DNA of 12,201 bases from Podochytrium sp. JEL0797 (lineage: Eukaryota > Chytridiomycota > Chytridiomycetes > Chytridiales > Chytriomycetaceae), in NCBI GenBank assembly GCA_027596195.1, contig JADGJG010000817.1:1-12201 (forward strand), in the 5' to 3' direction. The notes below the pieces were generated by a model. It was not told the DNA's origin. It did no database searches and worked only from the letters and a program-made list of their open reading frames with translations. A program made the position numbers and the translations under genes. The number at the start of each line of letters is the position of its first letter. Position 1 is the first letter of the stretch. Below, piece after piece: positions 1-12,201 of the stretch.

Positions 1-1302
1 GCGGTTTACCATTGTCCTCGTTTACGGTTCCCGTGTTTCTAACATCCCATAGAGAAATGGTCCCGTTTCTAGTCGCGGTGGCAAAGGCGTCTTGGGAGGA
101 GGTGTCAGTCATCAACTGGAGCGCGAAAAAGGTCAAAAATTTACTTGGATCATGAGGGTTGAAGGCAACCGACTTGACACTTGTGGAGTGTTTTCCAAAG
201 ACAGAGATAACTTCGCGCGTTTCGACACTCCACAGTTTGCAGGTTTGGTCGCCCGAGGCCGTCACCTGTTTCGTTGCGGGGATATCAGCGAAGGAAACAC
301 GGGCGCTTTTCGAACGGAGGGAGAGCATCACGCACAACAAACTGGTCATCGGGAGTCCAGATCACGTCAAAAATGTTGTTTTCGTGTGCTTGCCAGGAGT
401 AACCGTCTGAAATTGGACCTGTTTTGATTTTTTTGGTCGAGCGTGTCCAGGTCCGGAAATCAGCCCAAATAGCAAACAAAAGCAAAACACAAAATAAGAG
501 GGATGATCAAGACGATTTCAGGCAGACAGCACGTTAAAGTCCAGATTGGTTGGCTTGATCACGGTGAGGATCGCTGCGGGAAACGCGATCCACAATGACT
601 GCAACTTCTCGCCCACAATCCAAATCCAATCATTGCGCTGCGATCCCACTATTGCTTCCCAATGCATGCTTCGTAGCGGCCAACCTTCTCCATTGAACAC
701 GCACCTTCGGTTTCTGCGGTTTCGGCCGTGTCGAGAATCGAGACACGTCCATTTTCGCTTCCGATGGCCAGGTACTTTCCGTCGTTTGATTCTGCATCAG
801 TATCACAGTGAATTAGACACGATGTGCTCGAAAGGAAAGCGGGGGGGGGGGGTTCAGAGGGAGGCGGGAGTTTGCCGCCGGGCATTTCGCTAGCAAAGTA
901 GGTTATCGGAGGCGAGGGATCCTGATTGAGATAGATCTGGGGTTGAGATTCCCTGATCAGGCGCCAGCGGGAGGTAGAGGAGGCAGCAGAGCGGGGTTCG
1001 AAGGCAGCGGCCGATCGGTTGATCAGACTCGTTTTGTTACCGAAATTGTAGGCGCAGGCGTAGGTGTTTGCAGTGCAGACAAGGCGATCGGCTGGGCGCG
1101 AATAGAAGGTCGGCGCAAGCAGAGACCAGGCGGGGTTGGCTATTGGGAGGGAATGTGAGTTGGTAAGGAGACTAGGAACGGAGACTAGGAGACGAGACTA
1201 GGGGACTAGGTACTTACGAACGCAGAATCCAGGCCGCGCAGGGTGAGCAAGGCCACGCACTTCGCGGGAGCGGAGCGAGGCAAACAGCGAGGGCGGTGAC
1301 AT
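1..1302 (-). CDS. DTL: CDT2/DTL-like WD40 protein, N-terminal part (runs off left edge)
   Basis: Substrate receptor of the CRL4-Cdt2 ubiquitin ligase, a nuclear WD40 protein that targets PCNA-bound Cdt1 and similar substrates (family knowledge). Proposed exons on the minus strand: 1261-1302, 705-1197, 336-418, 145-265 and <1-90; phases agree at every junction. Three donors are GTGCGTG or GTGCGTGATG; branch points CTGAT and CTGAC are visible in the introns at 266-335 and 91-144. The spliced product contains successive WD40 blades: YLAIGSENGRVSILDT, then WQAHENNIFDVIWTPDDQF, VVTASGDQTCKLWSVETREV, HSTSVKSVAFNPHDP and NAFATATRNGTISLWDVRN. These follow the order and spacing of the first blades of animal DTL (W-AH-NAVFDLAW, AAGDQTAKFWDV, SLKSVAF, GRDGNIMVWDTR). 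Start ATG is at 1302. The N-terminus before blade 1 is longer than in animals, so exon 2 may hide another intron (see findings). An alternative intron 1 (1185-1217, donor GTAAGT) keeps frame but would be only 33 nt. The intron at 419-704 is unusually long (286 nt). The C-terminal PIP box is outside the window. Confidence 0.75.
1168..1210. repeat. CTAG-bearing short tandem repeat at DTL intron 1
   Basis: Four CTAG tetramers (1172, 1185, 1198, 1206) sit in a degenerate 13-nt repeat of the form GAGACTAGGA(A)CG. On the minus strand each copy gives a CCTAG that can act as a 3' splice acceptor, so the acceptor of DTL intron 1 is ambiguous. The choice at 1198 restores frame with the GTGCGTG donor at 1260 (63-nt intron). 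Confidence 0.6.
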
Positions 1303-3246: not shown

Positions 3247-3401
3247 ACGTTCTTCGACGTTTTCATATAATAAGCTCGTCCAACCATGGCATGTCCGGCA
3301 TTTGTATCCGAGTCTCGCTTGCGAACGTTCTTCGACGTTTTCATATAATAAGCTCGTCCAACGATGCCGTTTCCGACCATGTGTCCGAGTCTGGCTTGCG
3401 C
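3247..3401. repeat. Tandem direct duplication of about 78 nt over a gene's 3' end
   Basis: Two head-to-tail copies start at 3247 and 3325. The first 38 positions of each copy are identical; the rest differs by scattered substitutions and at least one indel. On the minus strand the copy at 3325-3401 holds the last codons (...DSDTWSETASLDELII) and, with its edge, the stop codon of the secreted gene at 3341. The copy at 3247-3324 repeats the same peptide-and-stop segment in the presumed 3' UTR with a frame slip (RKRDSDTNAGHA in one frame, WLDELII-stop in another). Confidence 0.85.
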
Positions 3402-4364: not shown

Positions 4365-5193
4365 TCAAAACACTCCCGTCTGCAAAAACCGCCTCCCTCT
4401 CTCTGAAAACGGATCCTCTTGTTCCACGAACCCGCGTCTCGCGCGGCGCGGGCGTCGCGAGTCGGGGGACACGTGGAGGTGGAAAGTTGCGTCAGGTCTT
4501 GCTAAGGGTTCCACCTCCGAGTCACTCTCCTATATAAAAAAAATTGGGGGGCTTTAGAAAACAGGGGGGGGGGGGGGTTCTTTGTTTTACCTCGTTGTTG
4601 GAAGAGTCGCGATCTTCAATCTCCTTCAAGGATTGAGGAAAAAAGAAGGGGGAAATCATCAGGGCCTCTCCATCGATGGTTTTTATATACCTCTTCGGAT
4701 CCAGTATCGAATCGCCAAGGCTTCGGGTTCGCGTCGCGTCGGCGATCTTCAATCTCCTGAGAGCAATCAAAATTCAATCACTCCCTTCGGGCTCATCAAG
4801 AGGAACAGCAAGAGAGTGGGGGTGAGAGGTGGGGGTCAATACCTCTTCAGATCCCGTATCAAATCTCCACGGTTTCGGGTTCGCGTCGCGTCGGCCCTCT
4901 TTGGGCTGCCAAAAAAGAATAGGTTGAGACAACTTCTTGTCTCCAAAAGATGCCCGTCGGCCTTTTCTCGCGGGGAGGGTTTACCTCTTGTGATCCAAAG
5001 CCAGCAACGTTCAAAGCCATTGGAAGTGCGTCTGTTGTTTGAAACTAAAACGGGGGTTTCAGAGGGCAGAAATTCAAAGAAAAAGGGGTTGGTTCGAAAA
5101 GAAGGGAATTGGCTACAAGCGCGTTTGGTTTGGACTCACCATACAAAGCATCACGCAGAGGCACGCGAGAAAGAGGACAGCAGTGGTTTTCAT
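4365..5193 (-). CDS. Secreted tandem-repeat precursor, candidate Kex2-processed peptide prohormone
   Basis: Six exons on the minus strand, all introns phase 0: 5140-5193, 4985-5044, 4843-4905, 4691-4756, 4591-4623, 4365-4529 (18+20+21+22+11+54 codons, plus stop). Introns are 95, 79, 86, 67 and 61 nt; intron 2 has branch point CTCAAC. The 146-residue product starts MKTTAVLFLACLCVMLCM (signal peptide). Residues 43-59 and 65-81 are the identical core RRDANPKPWRFDTGSEE, each followed by EEIEDR or EIEDR, so two near-identical peptides are bounded by GRR and DRRR dibasic sites. The C-terminus holds RRPRRARR (117-124) and GRR (137-139). Known family logic: fungal pheromones and KEP proteins are secreted repeat precursors cut by Kex2 at KR/RR. 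Inferred role: source of short secreted peptides. No homologue is recognised. A plus-strand 414-codon frame overlapping here is a shadow. Main doubts are the weak donors GTATTG and GTATAT and lack of transcript data. Confidence 0.7.
4691..4905 (-). repeat. Duplicated repeat exons of the secreted precursor
   Basis: Exons 4843-4905 and 4691-4756 are diverged duplicates; the intron between them is unlike the following one. A third, shortened exon (4591-4623) repeats only the first five codons (EIEDR). Each copy starts after an AG and ends GAG|GTA, so copies can be added or lost as whole exons without frame change. The 17-codon core differs at six third or first positions, all synonymous. Confidence 0.75.
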
Positions 5194-5428
5194 TATTTGG
5201 CGATAGAGAAGGAGACTGGGGATTTCGTTCCAAAACTTCTGGCACGTTCGAAAATCTCCTGCAATGAAAATCTTTCACGGTCTCTCGAAATACGCGGTGT
5301 TTTCGCACATCCTCAAGCCGCACAAAACAAAGGTAATTTCCTCGATATATCTTCAGAAACGGAATATTCAAATGGAAACCGAAATCGCCCCTATAACCCC
5401 CCCTTTCACACTCTCAGTCACTCCATAT
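5194..5428. promoter_or_regulatory. Spacer between the ZNF511-like stop and the repeat-precursor start
   Basis: Only 235 nt separate the two minus-strand genes, so this holds both the 3' end signals of the ZNF511-like gene and the promoter and 5' UTR of the precursor. A GATATAT at about 5343-5349 is the only TATA-like element seen on either strand. An AT-poor CGCGGTG lies near 5293. An ATTGCAG near 5262 could splice a 5' UTR intron. Confidence 0.4.
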
Positions 5429-6862
5429 TCACTCCATATCCGAATCCACCAACACGACTCCGCCCCCTTCTTCTCCCTCCATCTCACTCCCACTCTCCAC
5501 ACCAACCATCCCTCTCGCACCCTCTCTTCCAACACTGCCCATACCCCCATCCACCGTCATCGCACCCGATCCGGCACGGTTCCTCTCGACCCTCACGGCT
5601 CTTTTCTCCTTCCACACGCGTTCTGCCTCTTTCGCACGCGCGGGGACTCGCGCCTTGTATGCTTCGAGCGCTTTTTCACGCGTCCAGACTCCGGTGTGTG
5701 CGTTGGATGTGTGGCCTTGGTATTTGGGGGCCAGGATGGGGGGTGGTGGGGGGTGTGGGGTGGGTGTGGTGGATGAGGGTTCTGCGGGCGGTGGAGTTGG
5801 GAGAGGAGTGGATGAAGGTGTTTTGAGTGTGGGAGGGAGGGCGGGTTGGTGGGGTTGAGAAGAGGGTTTGGTGGCGGGGATGGGGTCAACTCCCATTGTG
5901 ACATCATTGGTTGAGGAAGTTGTTTCGATTGCGGAGGTGTTCGAAGAAAGGGGTTCGACAGCCATTGGAGCAACATTAGGGCCGTTCTGGAGTTTCGATT
6001 TGAGTGCAACGCTGCGTGGAACTAAACTCAAAGTTTTGAGTGATCCGAGAAGGGATTGGAACGCGTCTTCTTGGGCGTCTTGGTCCATGGGGTCTGTGGT
6101 TGATGGTGAATTCGTGGGGGCGGGTTTGGCAGGGTGCTTTTTGGGACGCGGTTTTCCTGAGCGTTTCTTTTTCGGGGTAGTTGATGTGTTGGAATCTGGT
6201 GGGATGGGTGCAGCGGATTGAATGGGTGATTCTGAATCGATTTTGACGGGTGGCAAGGAATGTGCGGTTGGTTCAAGTTTTTCGTGATGCGGTTTCGATT
6301 TGGCGTGCGGGTGATTCTTGTGGCTGGTTTTTGAATCAGCCAAGTAATAGGAGAGATAGAAAGACGCGAAACGTACTGATCGATTCCAGCCTTTCCGAGG
6401 ATAATGTGGAAATTGAAGTCGTGTTGAAACTCGTGCTTTTCCATGAGGTGTAGTTTGCGCTTGAAGGGCCCACTGAATTTGCGGTTGCAGTTGTCGACGA
6501 AGCATTCGTACTTTTGTGTATTTGATTAGTAGAAGAGTAAAGAAGAATAAATAACTTGTTACCAAGTTCTTTTCTCTGCAGGCCACTTCAAAAAACGAGT
6601 CGTGTATTTCCTTCAAATGCAAATCGAGCATTTTTTGCGAAGGAAGAAGACGGCGACAAAATGCGCAGGGAAACGAGTGCTCTTTAAACGAGTGGCTGCG
6701 CAAATCGCGGCGAGACGAGAAAGACGCGCAGTCGCACAGCCCACAACGGAACAAGGCTTCGAGGCGCACGTATTTCGAAAAGGTCAAAGTGTCGTCTGCG
6801 TCGCTCAAGTCGTCGTCTTGTTGCCACGTGGTCCACGCTGAGCAAAAGCTGCGTTTCGTCAT
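5429..6862 (-). CDS. ZNF511: ZNF511-like C2H2 zinc-finger protein
   Basis: Three exons: 6563-6862, 6377-6510 and 5429-6323, giving 442 residues. Introns are 52 nt (donor GTAACA, branch CTAAT, acceptor AAAAG) and 53 nt (donor GTACGT, branch CTGAT). Three fingers are visible: C40-x2-C43 with H57/H62, C66-x2-C69 with H82/H87 (CAFCRRLLPSQKMLDLHLKEIH in two pieces: CAFCRRLLPSQKM and LDLHLKEIH), and after the first intron C103-x4-C108 with H121/H126 (YECFVDNCNRKF). The order and the phrases FCRR-LPS--LLD-H--E-HDS-F and Y-C-V--C--KF are those of animal ZNF511, a conserved nuclear protein of poorly known function. After the fingers a KHEFQHDFNFH segment leads into about 300 residues of low-complexity, Pro/Ser/Thr-rich, Lys-rich sequence (KKKRSGKPRPKKHPAKPAP) and an acidic tail; animal ZNF511 lacks such a tail. 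Start ATG 6862 is the first in frame. It lies 31 nt after the upstream gene's stop. Confidence 0.75.
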   Translation of the reverse strand: MTKRSFCSAWTTWQQDDDLSDADDTLTFSKYVRLEALFRCGLCDCASFSSRRDLRSHSFKEHSFPCAFCRRLLPSQKMLDLHLKEIHDSFFEVACREKNLVTSYLFFFTLLLIKYTKVRMLRRQLQPQIQWALQAQTTPHGKARVSTRLQFPHYPRKGWNRSVRFASFYLSYYLADSKTSHKNHPHAKSKPHHEKLEPTAHSLPPVKIDSESPIQSAAPIPPDSNTSTTPKKKRSGKPRPKKHPAKPAPTNSPSTTDPMDQDAQEDAFQSLLGSLKTLSLVPRSVALKSKLQNGPNVAPMAVEPLSSNTSAIETTSSTNDVTMGVDPIPATKPSSQPHQPALPPTLKTPSSTPLPTPPPAEPSSTTPTPHPPPPPILAPKYQGHTSNAHTGVWTREKALEAYKARVPARAKEAERVWKEKRAVRVERNRAGSGAMTVDGGMGSVGREGARGMVGVESGSEMEGEEGGGVVLVDSDME

Positions 6863-6893
6863 TTTTGAGGTGCTTTTTTTGTCTTTGTCCTAT

Positions 6894-9125: not shown

Positions 9126-9349
9126 CGTGTTGAATGTTTTGCAAAGGAGTTCGGACAAATCTCGCTTCTCACTTTTTTTAATCACACCAATACAAAAGAA
9201 GGAATACTCTGATCATACGCATTCTCTTCTGACTCTTCATGCTCATAAAAGCGTGAGAACCTCAAGCCACGCGTTTGCGTCATGACTTATTGTTCGCCAG
9301 AACGTGAAATCTGATTGGAATGCCGCGTTTTTGATTCAAAACGCGACCC

Positions 9350-9368
9350 ATTGTTCTGCAAAGACAAT
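9350..9368 (+). promoter_or_regulatory. ATTGT-N9-ACAAT inverted repeat upstream of first ML gene
   Basis: ATTGT (9350-9354) and ACAAT (9364-9368) are separated by 9 nt and end 16 nt before the TATA box. Both half sites, the spacer length and the distance to TATA are kept in the second copy (10987-11005) although the surrounding bases have diverged. ATTGT/ACAAT cores are typical of HMG-box factors in fungi; the factor is unknown. Confidence 0.5.
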
Positions 9369-9384
9369 AGAAAACTAAGAGCAG

Positions 9385-9392
9385 TATAAATA
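9385..9392 (+). promoter_or_regulatory. TATA box of first ML gene
   Basis: TATAAATA lies 60 nt upstream of the ATG and is matched by an identical element upstream of the paralogue. Confidence 0.7.
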
Positions 9393-9444
9393 GACCCCAC
9401 TGAATCCCTTTCTTTTCTTCACAAGCTTTAAAAAATCTTAAACA

Positions 9445-10022
9445 ATGCAATTCTCCACTCTCCTCGCCACCCTCCTCTCCTCCACCGTAATAGCCCTCCC
9501 CTTTCTCCTCGAGGCCAGACAACAATCCGGAACAAGCGTTCTCTCAACCGGATGGACGTTTTGCCCCTCCAACGGGGGCTACGCCGGAATTTTCAACCTC
9601 CAAATCTCTCCATACCAACCACCGCAATCCATTTCGGTTCAATGGAACGGAGCGAGTACTTCGACTGTTCAAGTGTCTTCGGGGTCTGTGAACTTTACGT
9701 ACGCGTTGTTGGACCCGAATGGATCGGGCAACACCTTGCTCAGGAATACCAAGGTTTGCTTTCCCAGCTTTCCCCACTTCCCCCCCCTTATTCTTCTTAT
9801 TCACTCGACTAATCGATATCCCTCCTCCAGTTGTACGATCTCTGCGCGTTGCCCGGAATGACATGCCCGATAAACCCCGTCAACGCACAACTCAACTTTC
9901 AGCTCCCGCCGCCCACGGTGGCCAAGTCGAGCTCCGGGTTGAACGCGGCCGTGACCATCACCGTGTACGATCAAGTCAAGAACATTTACCTGTGTGTCAC
10001 GAACCCGAGTTATTCTGTTTAA
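9445..10022 (+). CDS. Secreted ML-domain (NPC2/PG-PI transfer protein-like) lipid-binding protein, copy 1
   Basis: Two exons, 9445-9753 and 9831-10022, with a 77-nt phase-0 intron (donor GTTTGC, branch GACTAAT, acceptor CTCCAG). The 166-residue product starts with a signal peptide (MQFSTLLATLLSSTVIA) and a short LPFLLEARQQSG pro-like segment. The rest fits an ML (MD-2-related lipid-recognition) fold: an early FCPSNGG, the ISPYQPP segment equivalent to the family's ISPxPP, LYDLCALPGMTCPI and a final NIYLCVTN. Four cysteines at about 40, 108, 115 and 158 would form the two usual disulfides (40-158, 108-115). Fungal relatives bind phospholipids or sterols outside the cell or in the vacuole; ligand here is unknown. 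The gene is a tandem paralogue of the one at 11088. Start context AAACAATG is good. Confidence 0.8.
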
Positions 10023-10919: not shown

Positions 10920-11087
10920 TTATTGTTCTTCTCCAAGCCGGAAATCTGATTGGAACACCGCGTTTTTCAACTCAAAAAGGCCACCTATTGTTCTGCCAAC
11001 ACAATGGAACGCTAAGAACAGTATAAATACGCTCCTCTCAAACGGACCCTTTCTTTCCTCACAAGCTCAAAACTCAATCCCCAAACA
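10920..11087 (+). promoter_or_regulatory. Duplicated promoter of second ML gene
   Basis: This block is collinear with 9285-9444. It keeps the CTTATTGTTC start, GAAATCTGATTGGAA (10941-10955, inverted CCAAT), CCGCGTTTTT, the ATTGT-N9-ACAAT repeat at 10987-11005 and the TATA box at 11022-11029, with the repeat-to-TATA spacing unchanged at 16 nt. The TATA box is 66 nt before the ATG. Confidence 0.65.
11022..11029 (+). promoter_or_regulatory. TATA box of second ML gene
   Basis: TATAAATA, preceded by AACAG and in the same position as in the first ML promoter. Confidence 0.7.
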
Positions 11088-11685
11088 ATGCAATTCACCA
11101 CCCTCCTCGCTTCCACCGCCCTCCTCCTCTCCTCCACCACAACCGCACTCCCTTTCCTCCTCGAAGCCAGACAACAATCCGGAACAAGCGTCCTCACTCC
11201 CGGGTGGTCGTTCTGCCCTTCCAACGGGGGATATGCGGGCATTTTCAACCTCCTCATCTCTCCGTATCAACCACCGCAGCCCATCTCGGTTCAATGGAAT
11301 GGAGCGAGTACTTCGGATATTGAAGTGACTTCGGGGTCTGTCAACTTTACGTACGCGTTGTTGAACCCGAATGGATCGGGCAACATTTTGCTCAAGAATA
11401 CCAAGGTTTTGCCACCCCCCCGTTCCCTTTTCACTATTCGCTAGTTCATGTTGTTAATCACCTATCCAACATCCCCTTACCCAACATCCCCAGCTGTATG
11501 ATCTCTGCACGTTACCTGGAATGAATTGCCCAATCGACGCTGTCAACGCGCAACTCAACTTCCAGCTGCCGCCGCCCACGGTGGCCAAGTCGAGTTCGGG
11601 GTTGAACGCGACCGTCACGATTACAGTGTATGATCAAGTCAAGAACATTTACTTGTGTGTCACGAACCCGACTTATTCAGTTTGA
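11088..11685 (+). CDS. Secreted ML-domain lipid-binding protein, copy 2
   Basis: Two exons, 11088-11405 and 11494-11685, with an 88-nt phase-0 intron (donor GTTTTG, acceptor CCCCAG) at the same position as in copy 1. The product is 169 residues: signal peptide MQFTTLLASTALLLSSTTTA, the same LPFLLEARQQSGTSVL segment, then the ML fold with cysteines at about 43, 111, 118 and 161. Exons are strongly conserved between the copies while introns are not alignable, which indicates selection on both proteins. Changes are mainly conservative (for example TVQVSSGS to DIEVTSGS, CALPGMTCPI to CTLPGMNCPI). Relative to copy 1 it has three extra residues, all within the signal peptide. Ligand unknown. Confidence 0.8.
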
Positions 11686-12025
11686 TTTTTTTTCTGTCTT
11701 TTGTATTGTTTCGTGTTTGTTGTTCCTTTTTTTTACTTTTTTGATATCAAGTTGCGGAATCTCGGATAAATTTGGCCAAAATAAATCAAAATCTATCGTC
11801 TACTTAAAGTTCTCTCGGGTTTGAAATACTTGTGTTTTTTTTCGTTGTTCGCCTGTCAGCCTGCTGTCAGCCCGTGTCACCACAAAGGAAACAAAAGAAT
11901 GGCTTTCACTTGTTTCTATTTATTTCTTCTTGTGCTTCACAAACTCTTTCAAAGCAACACTCCCGTCCGTAAATCCTAAACATCATAAATTAAAAGCATT
12001 CGTTTAACGCGTTGTCTGAGCACCA
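11686..12025. other. 3' flank of second ML gene
   Basis: No gene is seen. The stretch is T-rich directly after the stop (typical of fungal 3' UTRs), has AATAAA at 11780-11785, and the block 11773-11840 has a relative at 10818-10870. It then runs into the homopolymer at the window's right edge. Confidence 0.5.
11780..11785 (+). terminator. Candidate polyadenylation signal of second ML gene
   Basis: AATAAA about 95 nt after the stop codon, within a conserved block shared with the flank upstream of this gene. Confidence 0.45.
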
Positions 12026-12082
12026 CCCCCCCCCCCCCCCGCCCGGGGGGGGGCGGGGGGGGGGGGGTGGGGGGGGGGCCGG

Positions 12083-12120
<38 letters not shown>

Positions 12121-12139
12121 CTCGGGGGGGGGGGGGGGG

Positions 12140-12174
<35 letters not shown>

Positions 12175-12201
12175 GGGGCGCGGGTGGGCACTTGGCGGGG
12201 G
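12026..12201. repeat. C/G homopolymer edge, probably assembly artefact
   Basis: A run of 15 C is followed by GCCC and then about 150 nt of G with rare C, T or A interruptions to the end of the window. No telomere-like unit (such as TTAGGG) is present. The C-to-G switch would fold back on itself. Most likely a low-quality contig end; the long proline or glycine frames it produces are not genes. Confidence 0.75.

What the first reader, a model, noticed from the sequence alone, without database searches (positions are those of the whole stretch)
4365..5193. Undescribed secreted repeat precursor with dibasic processing sites
Seen: a six-exon, all-phase-0 model gives a 146-residue protein with a signal peptide and two copies of RRDANPKPWRFDTGSEE plus E-rich linkers ending DRRR or DR, and further dibasic clusters in the tail. 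Known: fungal pheromone and KEP precursors carry repeats released by Kex2 at KR/RR. Inferred: the locus could release the peptide DANPKPWRFDTGSEEEIED, a candidate signalling molecule. I recognise no such family.
Basis: partly seen in the sequence, partly recalled or inferred. Interest (0 to 1): 0.88.

Follow-up and report, generated by a model that had tools for sequence, protein, structure and literature searches.

The report
Unannotated chytrid secreted repeat-peptide precursor
A small overlooked gene in a water-living chytrid fungus appears to make a secreted protein carrying two identical copies of a short peptide next to cutting sites, the layout fungi use to release signalling peptides, but no relative and no function are known yet.

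Summary
On the minus strand, 5193-4365, six GT-AG exons, all phase 0, give a 146-residue protein with a signal-peptide-like start and two copies of RRDANPKPWRFDTGSEE followed by EIEDR. The repeat itself supports the model. The two 51-base core copies differ at six sites, all synonymous (P 4e-5 to 1.7e-4), and their similarity stops at the predicted splice sites while the introns are unlike. The contig belongs to Podochytrium sp. JEL0797, Chytridiomycota. The protein database holds NCBI's models for two neighbouring genes but returned nothing for this protein, so the gene is probably unannotated, and the absence of homologues says little. Kexin-, DPP-IV- and S10-carboxypeptidase-type genes are present.

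Best reading: a Kex2-processed precursor of an extracellular peptide. The core starts DA-NP-KP, which fits a Ste13 trimming ladder, as in alpha-factor-type precursors. With two copies it misses the three-repeat rule of published KEP surveys, so I call it KEP-like. Signalling is inferred, not shown.

The parts
5140..5193 (-). exon 1: first in-frame ATG, n- and h-region of the signal peptide (MKTTAVLFLACLCVMLCM)
   Evidence: 11-residue hydropathy maximum 3.19; context AATAATGA
4985..5044 (-). exon 2: c-region with likely cleavage TDA|LP, and N-terminal spacer
   Evidence: cleavage point by the (-3,-1) rule, recalled; no SignalP available; codon score -2.8, another frame scores +1.4
4843..4905 (-). 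exon 3: PKEG-RR-DANPKPWRFDTGSEE, core copy 1 preceded by a dibasic site
4691..4756 (-). exon 4: EIED-RRR-DANPKPWRFDTGSEE, linker and tribasic site closing copy 1, then core copy 2
4591..4623 (-). exon 5: EIEDR-DSSNNE, second linker copy, with a single Arg instead of a dibasic site
   Evidence: first 15 nt identical to those of exon 4
4365..4529 (-). exon 6: acidic stretch and arginine-rich tail with RRPRRARR and RGRR, stop TGA
   Evidence: codon score -2.9, still best of its three sense frames
4742..4893 (-). repeat unit A: RR + core (4893-4843), intron 3, EIEDR (4756-4742)
4609..4741 (-). repeat unit B: RR + core (4741-4691), intron 4, EIEDR (4623-4609)
4757..4842 (-). intron 3 (86 nt), inside unit A
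   Evidence: no detectable similarity to intron 4
4624..4690 (-). intron 4 (67 nt), inside unit B

Best explanation
A real, single-copy, probably unannotated gene of the chytrid Podochytrium sp. JEL0797 encodes a secreted preproprotein. It enters the ER by its signal peptide, is cut in the late secretory pathway by a kexin-type protease after EGRR and EDRRR (and in the tail after RARR and RGRR), is trimmed at the C-terminus by an S10 carboxypeptidase, and releases DANPKPWRFDTGSEEEIED from copy 1 and a C-terminally longer form from copy 2. A Ste13-like DPP-IV enzyme may then remove the XA/XP dipeptides DA, NP and KP, leaving WRFDTGSEEEIED. The mature peptide most likely acts as an extracellular signal between cells of the fungus or towards neighbours. 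Shown: gene anatomy, the protein-level constraint on the core, and presence of the enzyme families. Inferred: secretion, each cleavage, the trimming, and the signalling role. Rough likelihoods: gene as modelled 0.85; secreted and cut at dibasic sites 0.6; the peptide is a signal 0.35.
For: Exact exon chain. Synonymous-only divergence of the core, dS about 0.87 with no amino-acid change. Similarity limited to exons, ending at the splice sites. Hydrophobic signal-like start that spans the exon 1/2 junction. Mature part without cysteine, low hydropathy on the disordered side of the charge-hydropathy boundary, and enriched in dibasic clusters. Kexin-like S8 protease matching PDB kexin at E 6e-64, and three P-domain loci. 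A DPPIV_N gene, two matched stretches at one place. 19 S10-carboxypeptidase matches. The core starts DA-NP-KP right after RR, the XA/XP pattern described for Ste13 sites with X often Asp or Glu (PMC9769878 passages; PMC6339444 section 9). KEPs are reported from 14 of 19 surveyed Chytridiomycota strains (PMC7329392 passages).
Against: No transcript, peptide or homologue. The protein set holds NCBI models of two neighbours on this contig but not, at about 80-255 aa, this one. Only copy 1 is bracketed by dibasic sites. Only two repeats. Codon score positive but low (+2.3 against a mean of 23.9 for 22 training chunks, minimum -8.3; +0.6 with a larger training set), exons 2 and 6 slightly negative and exon 2 better in another frame. 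The Ste13 pattern was noticed after the fact and is one observation, not two, because the copies are duplicates.
Confidence: 0.5

Rival explanations
1. A secreted, largely disordered protein that works uncut: the repeated core is a binding or structural motif (wall, matrix or host surface), and the arginine pairs are part of a charged low-complexity sequence.
For: Copy 2 lacks a closing dibasic site; the protein is rich in both Arg and Glu, and composition alone would give about 2.9 dibasic clusters. Constraint on the core fits any function of the core.
Against: Both cores are directly preceded by RR, and the duplicated unit begins at that RR; 6 clusters against 2.9 expected, P 0.017.
Confidence: 0.22
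2. A secreted effector-like protein or peptide that acts on another organism rather than a self-signal; members of the genus are recorded on diatoms.
For: Small, signal-peptide-like start, no homologue found; Podochytrium species are listed as diatom parasites (PMC10643281, passages); KEPs have been discussed as effectors (PMC6339444, abstract).
Against: No cysteine in the mature part; no evidence on expression or host contact; the ecology of this isolate was not found (no paper with JEL0797 or JEL797).
Confidence: 0.15
3. The exon chain is partly wrong: the duplicated core exons are coding, but the first or last exons differ, so that the product is not secreted or has another tail.
For: Exons 2 and 6 have slightly negative codon scores, exon 2 scores better in another frame, and the whole chain scores low; intron 5 holds a long C run.
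Against: Signal-like segment spans the exon 1/2 junction; every exon is phase 0 and open; each retained intron gives a stop.
Confidence: 0.1
4. Not a gene: a decayed or chance open region, or coding on the other strand (plus-strand open frame 4558-5826).
For: Long plus-strand open frame; no annotated protein or homologue found.
Against: The plus-strand frame scores -64.9 by codon use (a weak measure), and no antisense frame keeps the repeat's protein identical; synonymous-only change argues for the minus-strand frame.
Confidence: 0.03

Closest known systems
KEX2-processed repeat proteins (KEPs) of Le Marquer 2019 and Umemura 2020
   Same: Signal-peptide-like start, repeated 19-residue motif preceded by RR, short cysteine-free mature protein, Kex2-type protease in the genome; KEPs are known in Chytridiomycota.
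   Different: Two repeats instead of at least three; copy 2 not closed by a dibasic site; each unit is split by an intron and appears to have been duplicated together with it; no sequence relative found.
Ascomycete alpha-factor-type pheromone precursors
   Same: Order of parts: signal peptide, spacer, dibasic site, XA/XP dipeptides, then a core that would start with Trp (the Trp start of yeast alpha-factor is recalled).
   Different: No sequence similarity found, no STE2 match in the genome (control silent); another phylum; two copies with an acidic tail.
Dikaritin RiPP precursors (ustiloxin type)
   Same: Dibasic-flanked repeat behind a signal-like start.
   Different: No UstYa/DUF3328 gene among the 9 other window ORFs scanned or matched in the genome (control silent); no Tyr in the core.
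Animal neuropeptide precursors
   Same: Dibasic sites and GRR motifs that would be amidation sites in animals (recalled).
   Different: No amidating-monooxygenase domain matched (control silent); a chytrid, not an animal.

Membership tests
KEP | N-terminal signal peptide (SignalP in the surveys) | tested here: inconclusive
   Hydrophobic core VLFLACLCVML, mean hydropathy 3.19, first in-frame Met, TDA|LP site; SignalP not available.
KEP | At least three similar repeats between Kex2 sites (PMC6339444 section 24, PMC7329392 section 13) | tested here: not met
   Two copies; protein searches of the own genome found no further copy (counts are lower bounds).
KEP | Each repeat flanked by KR, RR, KK or RK | tested here: not met
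   Copy 1: RR before and RRR after. Copy 2: RRR before, single Arg (EDR-D) after.
KEP | Repeats make up at least 15% of the protein | tested here: met
   2 x 19 of 146 residues, 26%; arithmetic on the protein, threshold.
KEP | Kex2-type protease in the genome | tested here: met
   Three P-domain loci; S8 domain matching kexin at E 6e-64.
KEP | Released peptides demonstrated | not testable with these tools
   Needs mass spectrometry.
alpha-factor-type pheromone precursor | XA/XP dipeptides directly after the Kex2 site | tested here: met
   RR-DA-NP-KP-W in both copies (definition); one evolutionary observation.
alpha-factor-type pheromone precursor | Ste13-type dipeptidyl aminopeptidase present | tested here: met
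   DPPIV_N match at G000:C175, E 2.6e-69; family level only, not shown to be a Golgi enzyme.
alpha-factor-type pheromone precursor | STE2-type receptor present | tested here: inconclusive
   No PF02116 match, but no control genome rang; STE2-like receptors are reported only from Ascomycota (PMC12842992 passage).
alpha-factor-type pheromone precursor | Homology to known alpha pheromones | tested here: not met
   No Pfam or NCBIfam match and no protein at E <= 10; short peptides can be missed by such searches.
Dikaritin RiPP precursor | UstYa/DUF3328 gene nearby | tested here: inconclusive
   None in 9 other window ORFs scanned, the contig being only 12 kb; no genome match, control silent.
Dikaritin RiPP precursor | Tyrosine in the core (recalled) | tested here: not met
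   No Tyr in the mature protein (composition).

The most novel reading that the evidence does not exclude
A flagellated fungus uses a peptide signal made by the full alpha-factor-type route (Kex2 cut, then Ste13 trimming of DA-NP-KP, giving a Trp-initial peptide). That would put this route near the base of the fungi, where pheromone chemistry is largely unknown and where Rhizophagus was named the only early-diverging fungus with Ste13 signatures (PMC6339444 section 18).
Probability: 0.15. Interest if true: 0.75.

Novelty: new variant of a known kind. Interest (0 to 1): 0.5.

Why it matters
If the peptide is released and active it would be a candidate peptide signal of a chytrid; Le Marquer et al. 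state that pheromone chemistry outside Mucoromycotina and Blastocladiomycota is largely unknown among early-diverging fungi (PMC6339444 section 18). It also shows what surveys can miss: a two-copy precursor with repeats split by introns falls below the three-repeat rule and, here, probably escaped gene annotation altogether. Catalogues built on predicted proteins could therefore undercount such genes in intron-rich fungi.

Tried and rejected
Coding on the plus strand: open frame 4558-5826 scores -64.9 by codon use; rejected mainly because no antisense frame keeps the repeat identical. A first codon-usage run trained partly on the wrong strand of two loci (L006, L010) and put an antisense frame on top (38.1 against 25.0 for frame 0); it was discarded after I saw the strand error, and replace it. 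For one search, 3 of the 17 long open frames listed were dropped from training by eye as non-coding.

Amidated neuropeptide-like product: no PF03712 match, control silent, so not excluded, only unsupported. RiPP/dikaritin: no UstYa match (control silent). Cysteine-rich toxin or effector: the mature part has no cysteine. Cationic antimicrobial peptide: the predicted 19-mer has 7 acidic and 2 basic residues; not pursued. A four-residue likeness (ANPK) to PSY-type plant peptide hormones was noticed from recall only and set aside, because the core has no tyrosine to be sulfated; not searched.

Relatives: two protein searches, viral contigs (11 pattern stretches, none confirmed) and prokaryotic genome contigs (78 stretches, none confirmed) gave nothing. 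By their descriptions these DNA collections are viral or prokaryotic, so the negatives are weak. The DNA pattern was my own back-translation with codons that the window does not use; its empty result means nothing. Structure prediction was not attempted: the spliced protein is not contiguous in the window's DNA and the mature chain looks disordered. Rfam on the window: no match. Literature: no paper with the core letters or locus prefix; no paper with all of '24.4 Mb', Chytridiomycota and 'genome assembly'.

Full report
WHAT WAS CHECKED. The minus strand of 5193-4365 was rebuilt exon by exon in a script. The six exons are 54, 60, 63, 66, 33 and 165 nt, all in phase 0, separated by five GT-AG introns of 95, 79, 86, 67 and 61 nt. 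The product is 146 aa: MKTTAVLFLACLCVMLCM / FQTTDALPMALNVAGFGSQE / PKEGRRDANPKPWRFDTGSEE / EIEDRRRDANPKPWRFDTGSEE / EIEDRDSSNNE / ESDSEVEPLARPDATFHLHVSPDSRRPRRARRGFVEQEDPFSERGRRFLQTGVF. None of the intron lengths is a multiple of three, and keeping any one intron gives an early stop, while exons 2, 3, 4 or 5 can each be skipped in frame.

WHY IT IS MORE THAN CHANCE. The locus holds its own comparative test. The repeat unit is not simply an exon: it runs from the RR through the core, across an intron, to EIEDR at the start of the next exon. Unit A and unit B are 66 coding bases each and differ at 6 positions; all 6 lie in the 51-base core and all are synonymous (five third positions and one AGA/CGA first position). 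Six random substitutions would be all synonymous with P 4e-5 (uniform) or 1.7e-4 (transition-biased) on the core, 400,000 trials each, and 1.2e-4 on the 66-base unit, 60,000 trials. Counting sites, dS is about 0.87 and dN is 0, so this looks like an old duplication whose peptide has been kept. In the other five frames the two copies differ by 2 to 6 amino acids. Similarity runs 4 bases past the predicted donor (GTAT) and stops, and on the other side starts at the predicted acceptor AG; introns 3 and 4 align no better than shuffles (75 of 500 reach the observed score).

Codon usage gives only weak support. Trained on 14 open frames (4,287 codons) from kexin, IFT46 and chitin-synthase loci of the same genome, frame 0 of the whole chain scores +2.3 against -5.5 to -24.0 in the other five frames. 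That is low beside the mean of 23.9 for 22 training chunks (minimum -8.3). Exons 2 and 6 are at -2.8 and -2.9, and exon 2 scores +1.4 in another frame. The measure discriminates poorly: off-frame training chunks reach 23.2, and the neighbouring zinc-finger frame scores -46.1, although exon 1 of an annotated neighbour behaves well (10.8 against -32.4 and -15.2) (all). Adding the two annotated neighbours to the training set gives +0.6 against -5.6 to -26.0.

WHOSE GENE. A protein search with a neighbouring small secreted gene returned two proteins (of 187 candidates), both on a 12,201-base contig: HDU98_011143 and HDU98_011142 of Podochytrium sp. JEL0797; my spliced protein matched HDU98_011143 over its full length at 100%. 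The genus is in Chytriomycetaceae, Chytridiales, Chytridiomycota. Matches to IFT46 and strong matches to chitin synthase (best E 3.3e-163; 4 of the 14 control genomes, bacteria, also ring for that family, so only the strongest of its 45 matches count) agree with a flagellated fungus. The database therefore holds deposited gene models of this contig, yet the 146-aa protein found nothing at E <= 10 among 58 candidates (candidates of about 80-255 aa), and a 74-residue query found no candidate. So the gene is probably unannotated, or modelled at a very different length. It follows that the lack of homologues in protein databases is poor evidence: relatives may have unannotated copies too. Pfam, NCBIfam, PADLOC and PDB sequences gave no match. 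In the own genome the searches matched only this locus.

HOW IT MOST LIKELY WORKS. The start has a short basic n-region, a hydrophobic run (VLFLACLCVML, mean hydropathy 3.19) and a TDA|LP site. The remaining 122 residues have no cysteine, lie on the disordered side of the charge-hydropathy boundary (mean hydropathy 0.343 against 0.434), and hold 6 dibasic clusters against a mean of 2.9 in 20,000 composition-keeping shuffles (P 0.017). Cutting after dibasic sites, except before Pro or a further basic residue, gives fragments of 20, 22, 55, 3, 15 and 7 residues. Copy 1 is freed as DANPKPWRFDTGSEEEIED-RRR; copy 2 runs on to the tail because its linker reads EIEDR-DSSNNE. A single Arg after Asp is a poor kexin site (recalled). 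Since both copies share an exact RR junction at the amino end, the functional end is more likely the N-terminal one (inference).

The enzyme families exist in this genome: three P-domain loci, one of which also has an S8 domain matching yeast kexin structures at E 6e-64, with furin close behind (3.7e-63), and a hydrophobic stretch near its C-terminus (by eye); a DPPIV_N match; and 19 S10-carboxypeptidase matches. Directly after RR the core reads DA-NP-KP-WRF. Vogt et al. describe the Ste13 motif as repeated XP or XA, X often Asp or Glu, after the Kex2 site (PMC9769878, passages), and Le Marquer et al. scored XA/XP there (PMC6339444 sections 9 and 24). Three such dipeptides in a row by composition alone (Ala+Pro 18 of 122) would be about 0.3%, but this was noticed after the fact. 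Trimming would leave WRFDTGSEEEIED. A role as an extracellular signal is a common reading of this architecture; nothing here tests it.

WHAT IT IS AND IS NOT. Both surveys demand at least three repeats (PMC6339444 section 24; PMC7329392 section 13), and Vogt's script demands similarity to at least two other fragments (PMC9769878 section 14). With two copies, one of them not closed by a dibasic site, this is not a KEP by those definitions, though Le Marquer et al. note that some alpha-pheromone precursors do not have the usual four or more repeats. It works like one, if the inference above holds. KEPs as such are not new in the phylum: 178 in 14 of 19 Chytridiomycota strains (PMC7329392 passages). 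What is unusual is the two-copy design with intron-split units; that other KEPs mostly have uninterrupted repeats is general knowledge, not tested here (the word intron does not occur in the main text of the Umemura paper).

Negative searches to weigh: STE2, STE3, UstYa and the amidating-enzyme domain were not matched, but in each case no control genome rang, so absence is not shown. STE2-like receptors are in any case reported only from Ascomycota (PMC12842992 passage), so a receptor, if there is one, may be of another kind.

LITERATURE SEEN. PMC6339444: abstract, sections 6, 9, 18, 24. PMC7329392: abstract, section 13, passages. PMC9769878: abstract, section 14, passages. PMC12842992, PMC6733946, PMC10643281, PMC7537106: passages only. 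A search for the core letters or the locus prefix found 0 papers. One search listed 8 papers with Podochytrium, none with JEL0797 or JEL797; 2 of the 8 were opened. Searches listed 1, 5 and 6 papers on related topics, of which 0, 2 and 2 were opened. Supplementary tables of the KEP surveys could not be consulted, so a listing of this gene or a relative there is not excluded.

VERDICT. Real and overlooked gene, very likely; KEP-like secreted precursor, likely; peptide signal, plausible. The decisive steps are a search of chytrid genome assemblies at DNA level and a mass-spectrometry test in yeast.

Noticed in passing
window 9445-10022 and 11088-11685 (+): Two tandem secreted paralogues (166 and 169 aa, 85% identical; HDU98_011142 and HDU98_011143), with no Pfam match over cut-off and no other relative among 187 candidates. 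By eye the cysteine and beta-strand pattern recalls ML/NPC2-type lipid-binding proteins, which Pfam did not support.
   Followed up: partly
window about 9230-9440 and 10920-11085: The upstream regions of the two tandem paralogues look alike by eye, as in a recent tandem duplication that includes the promoter.
   Followed up: no
window about 3253-3284 and 3331-3362: Direct repeat (TTCGACGTTTTCATATAATAAGCTCGTCCAAC), seen by eye.
   Followed up: no
window 5429-6889 (-): C2H2 zinc-finger-like frame with a proline-rich tail just upstream of the precursor; only weak Pfam zinc-finger matches, below cut-off. It recalls ZNF511-type proteins, from memory.
   Followed up: no
window 2-1197 (-): WD40 gene cut by the contig end; best Pfam model for its first part is the THOC3 beta-propeller, below that model's cut-off.
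   Followed up: no
window 12010-12201: The contig ends in a long G-rich simple repeat (glycine- or proline-rich in the frames listed), probably where assembly stopped.
   Followed up: no
G000:C90, near 30913-31083 (-) and 41325-41495 (+): Two further kexin/furin-like P-domain loci about 10 kb apart in opposite directions, so this chytrid has at least three such genes or gene parts.
   Followed up: partly
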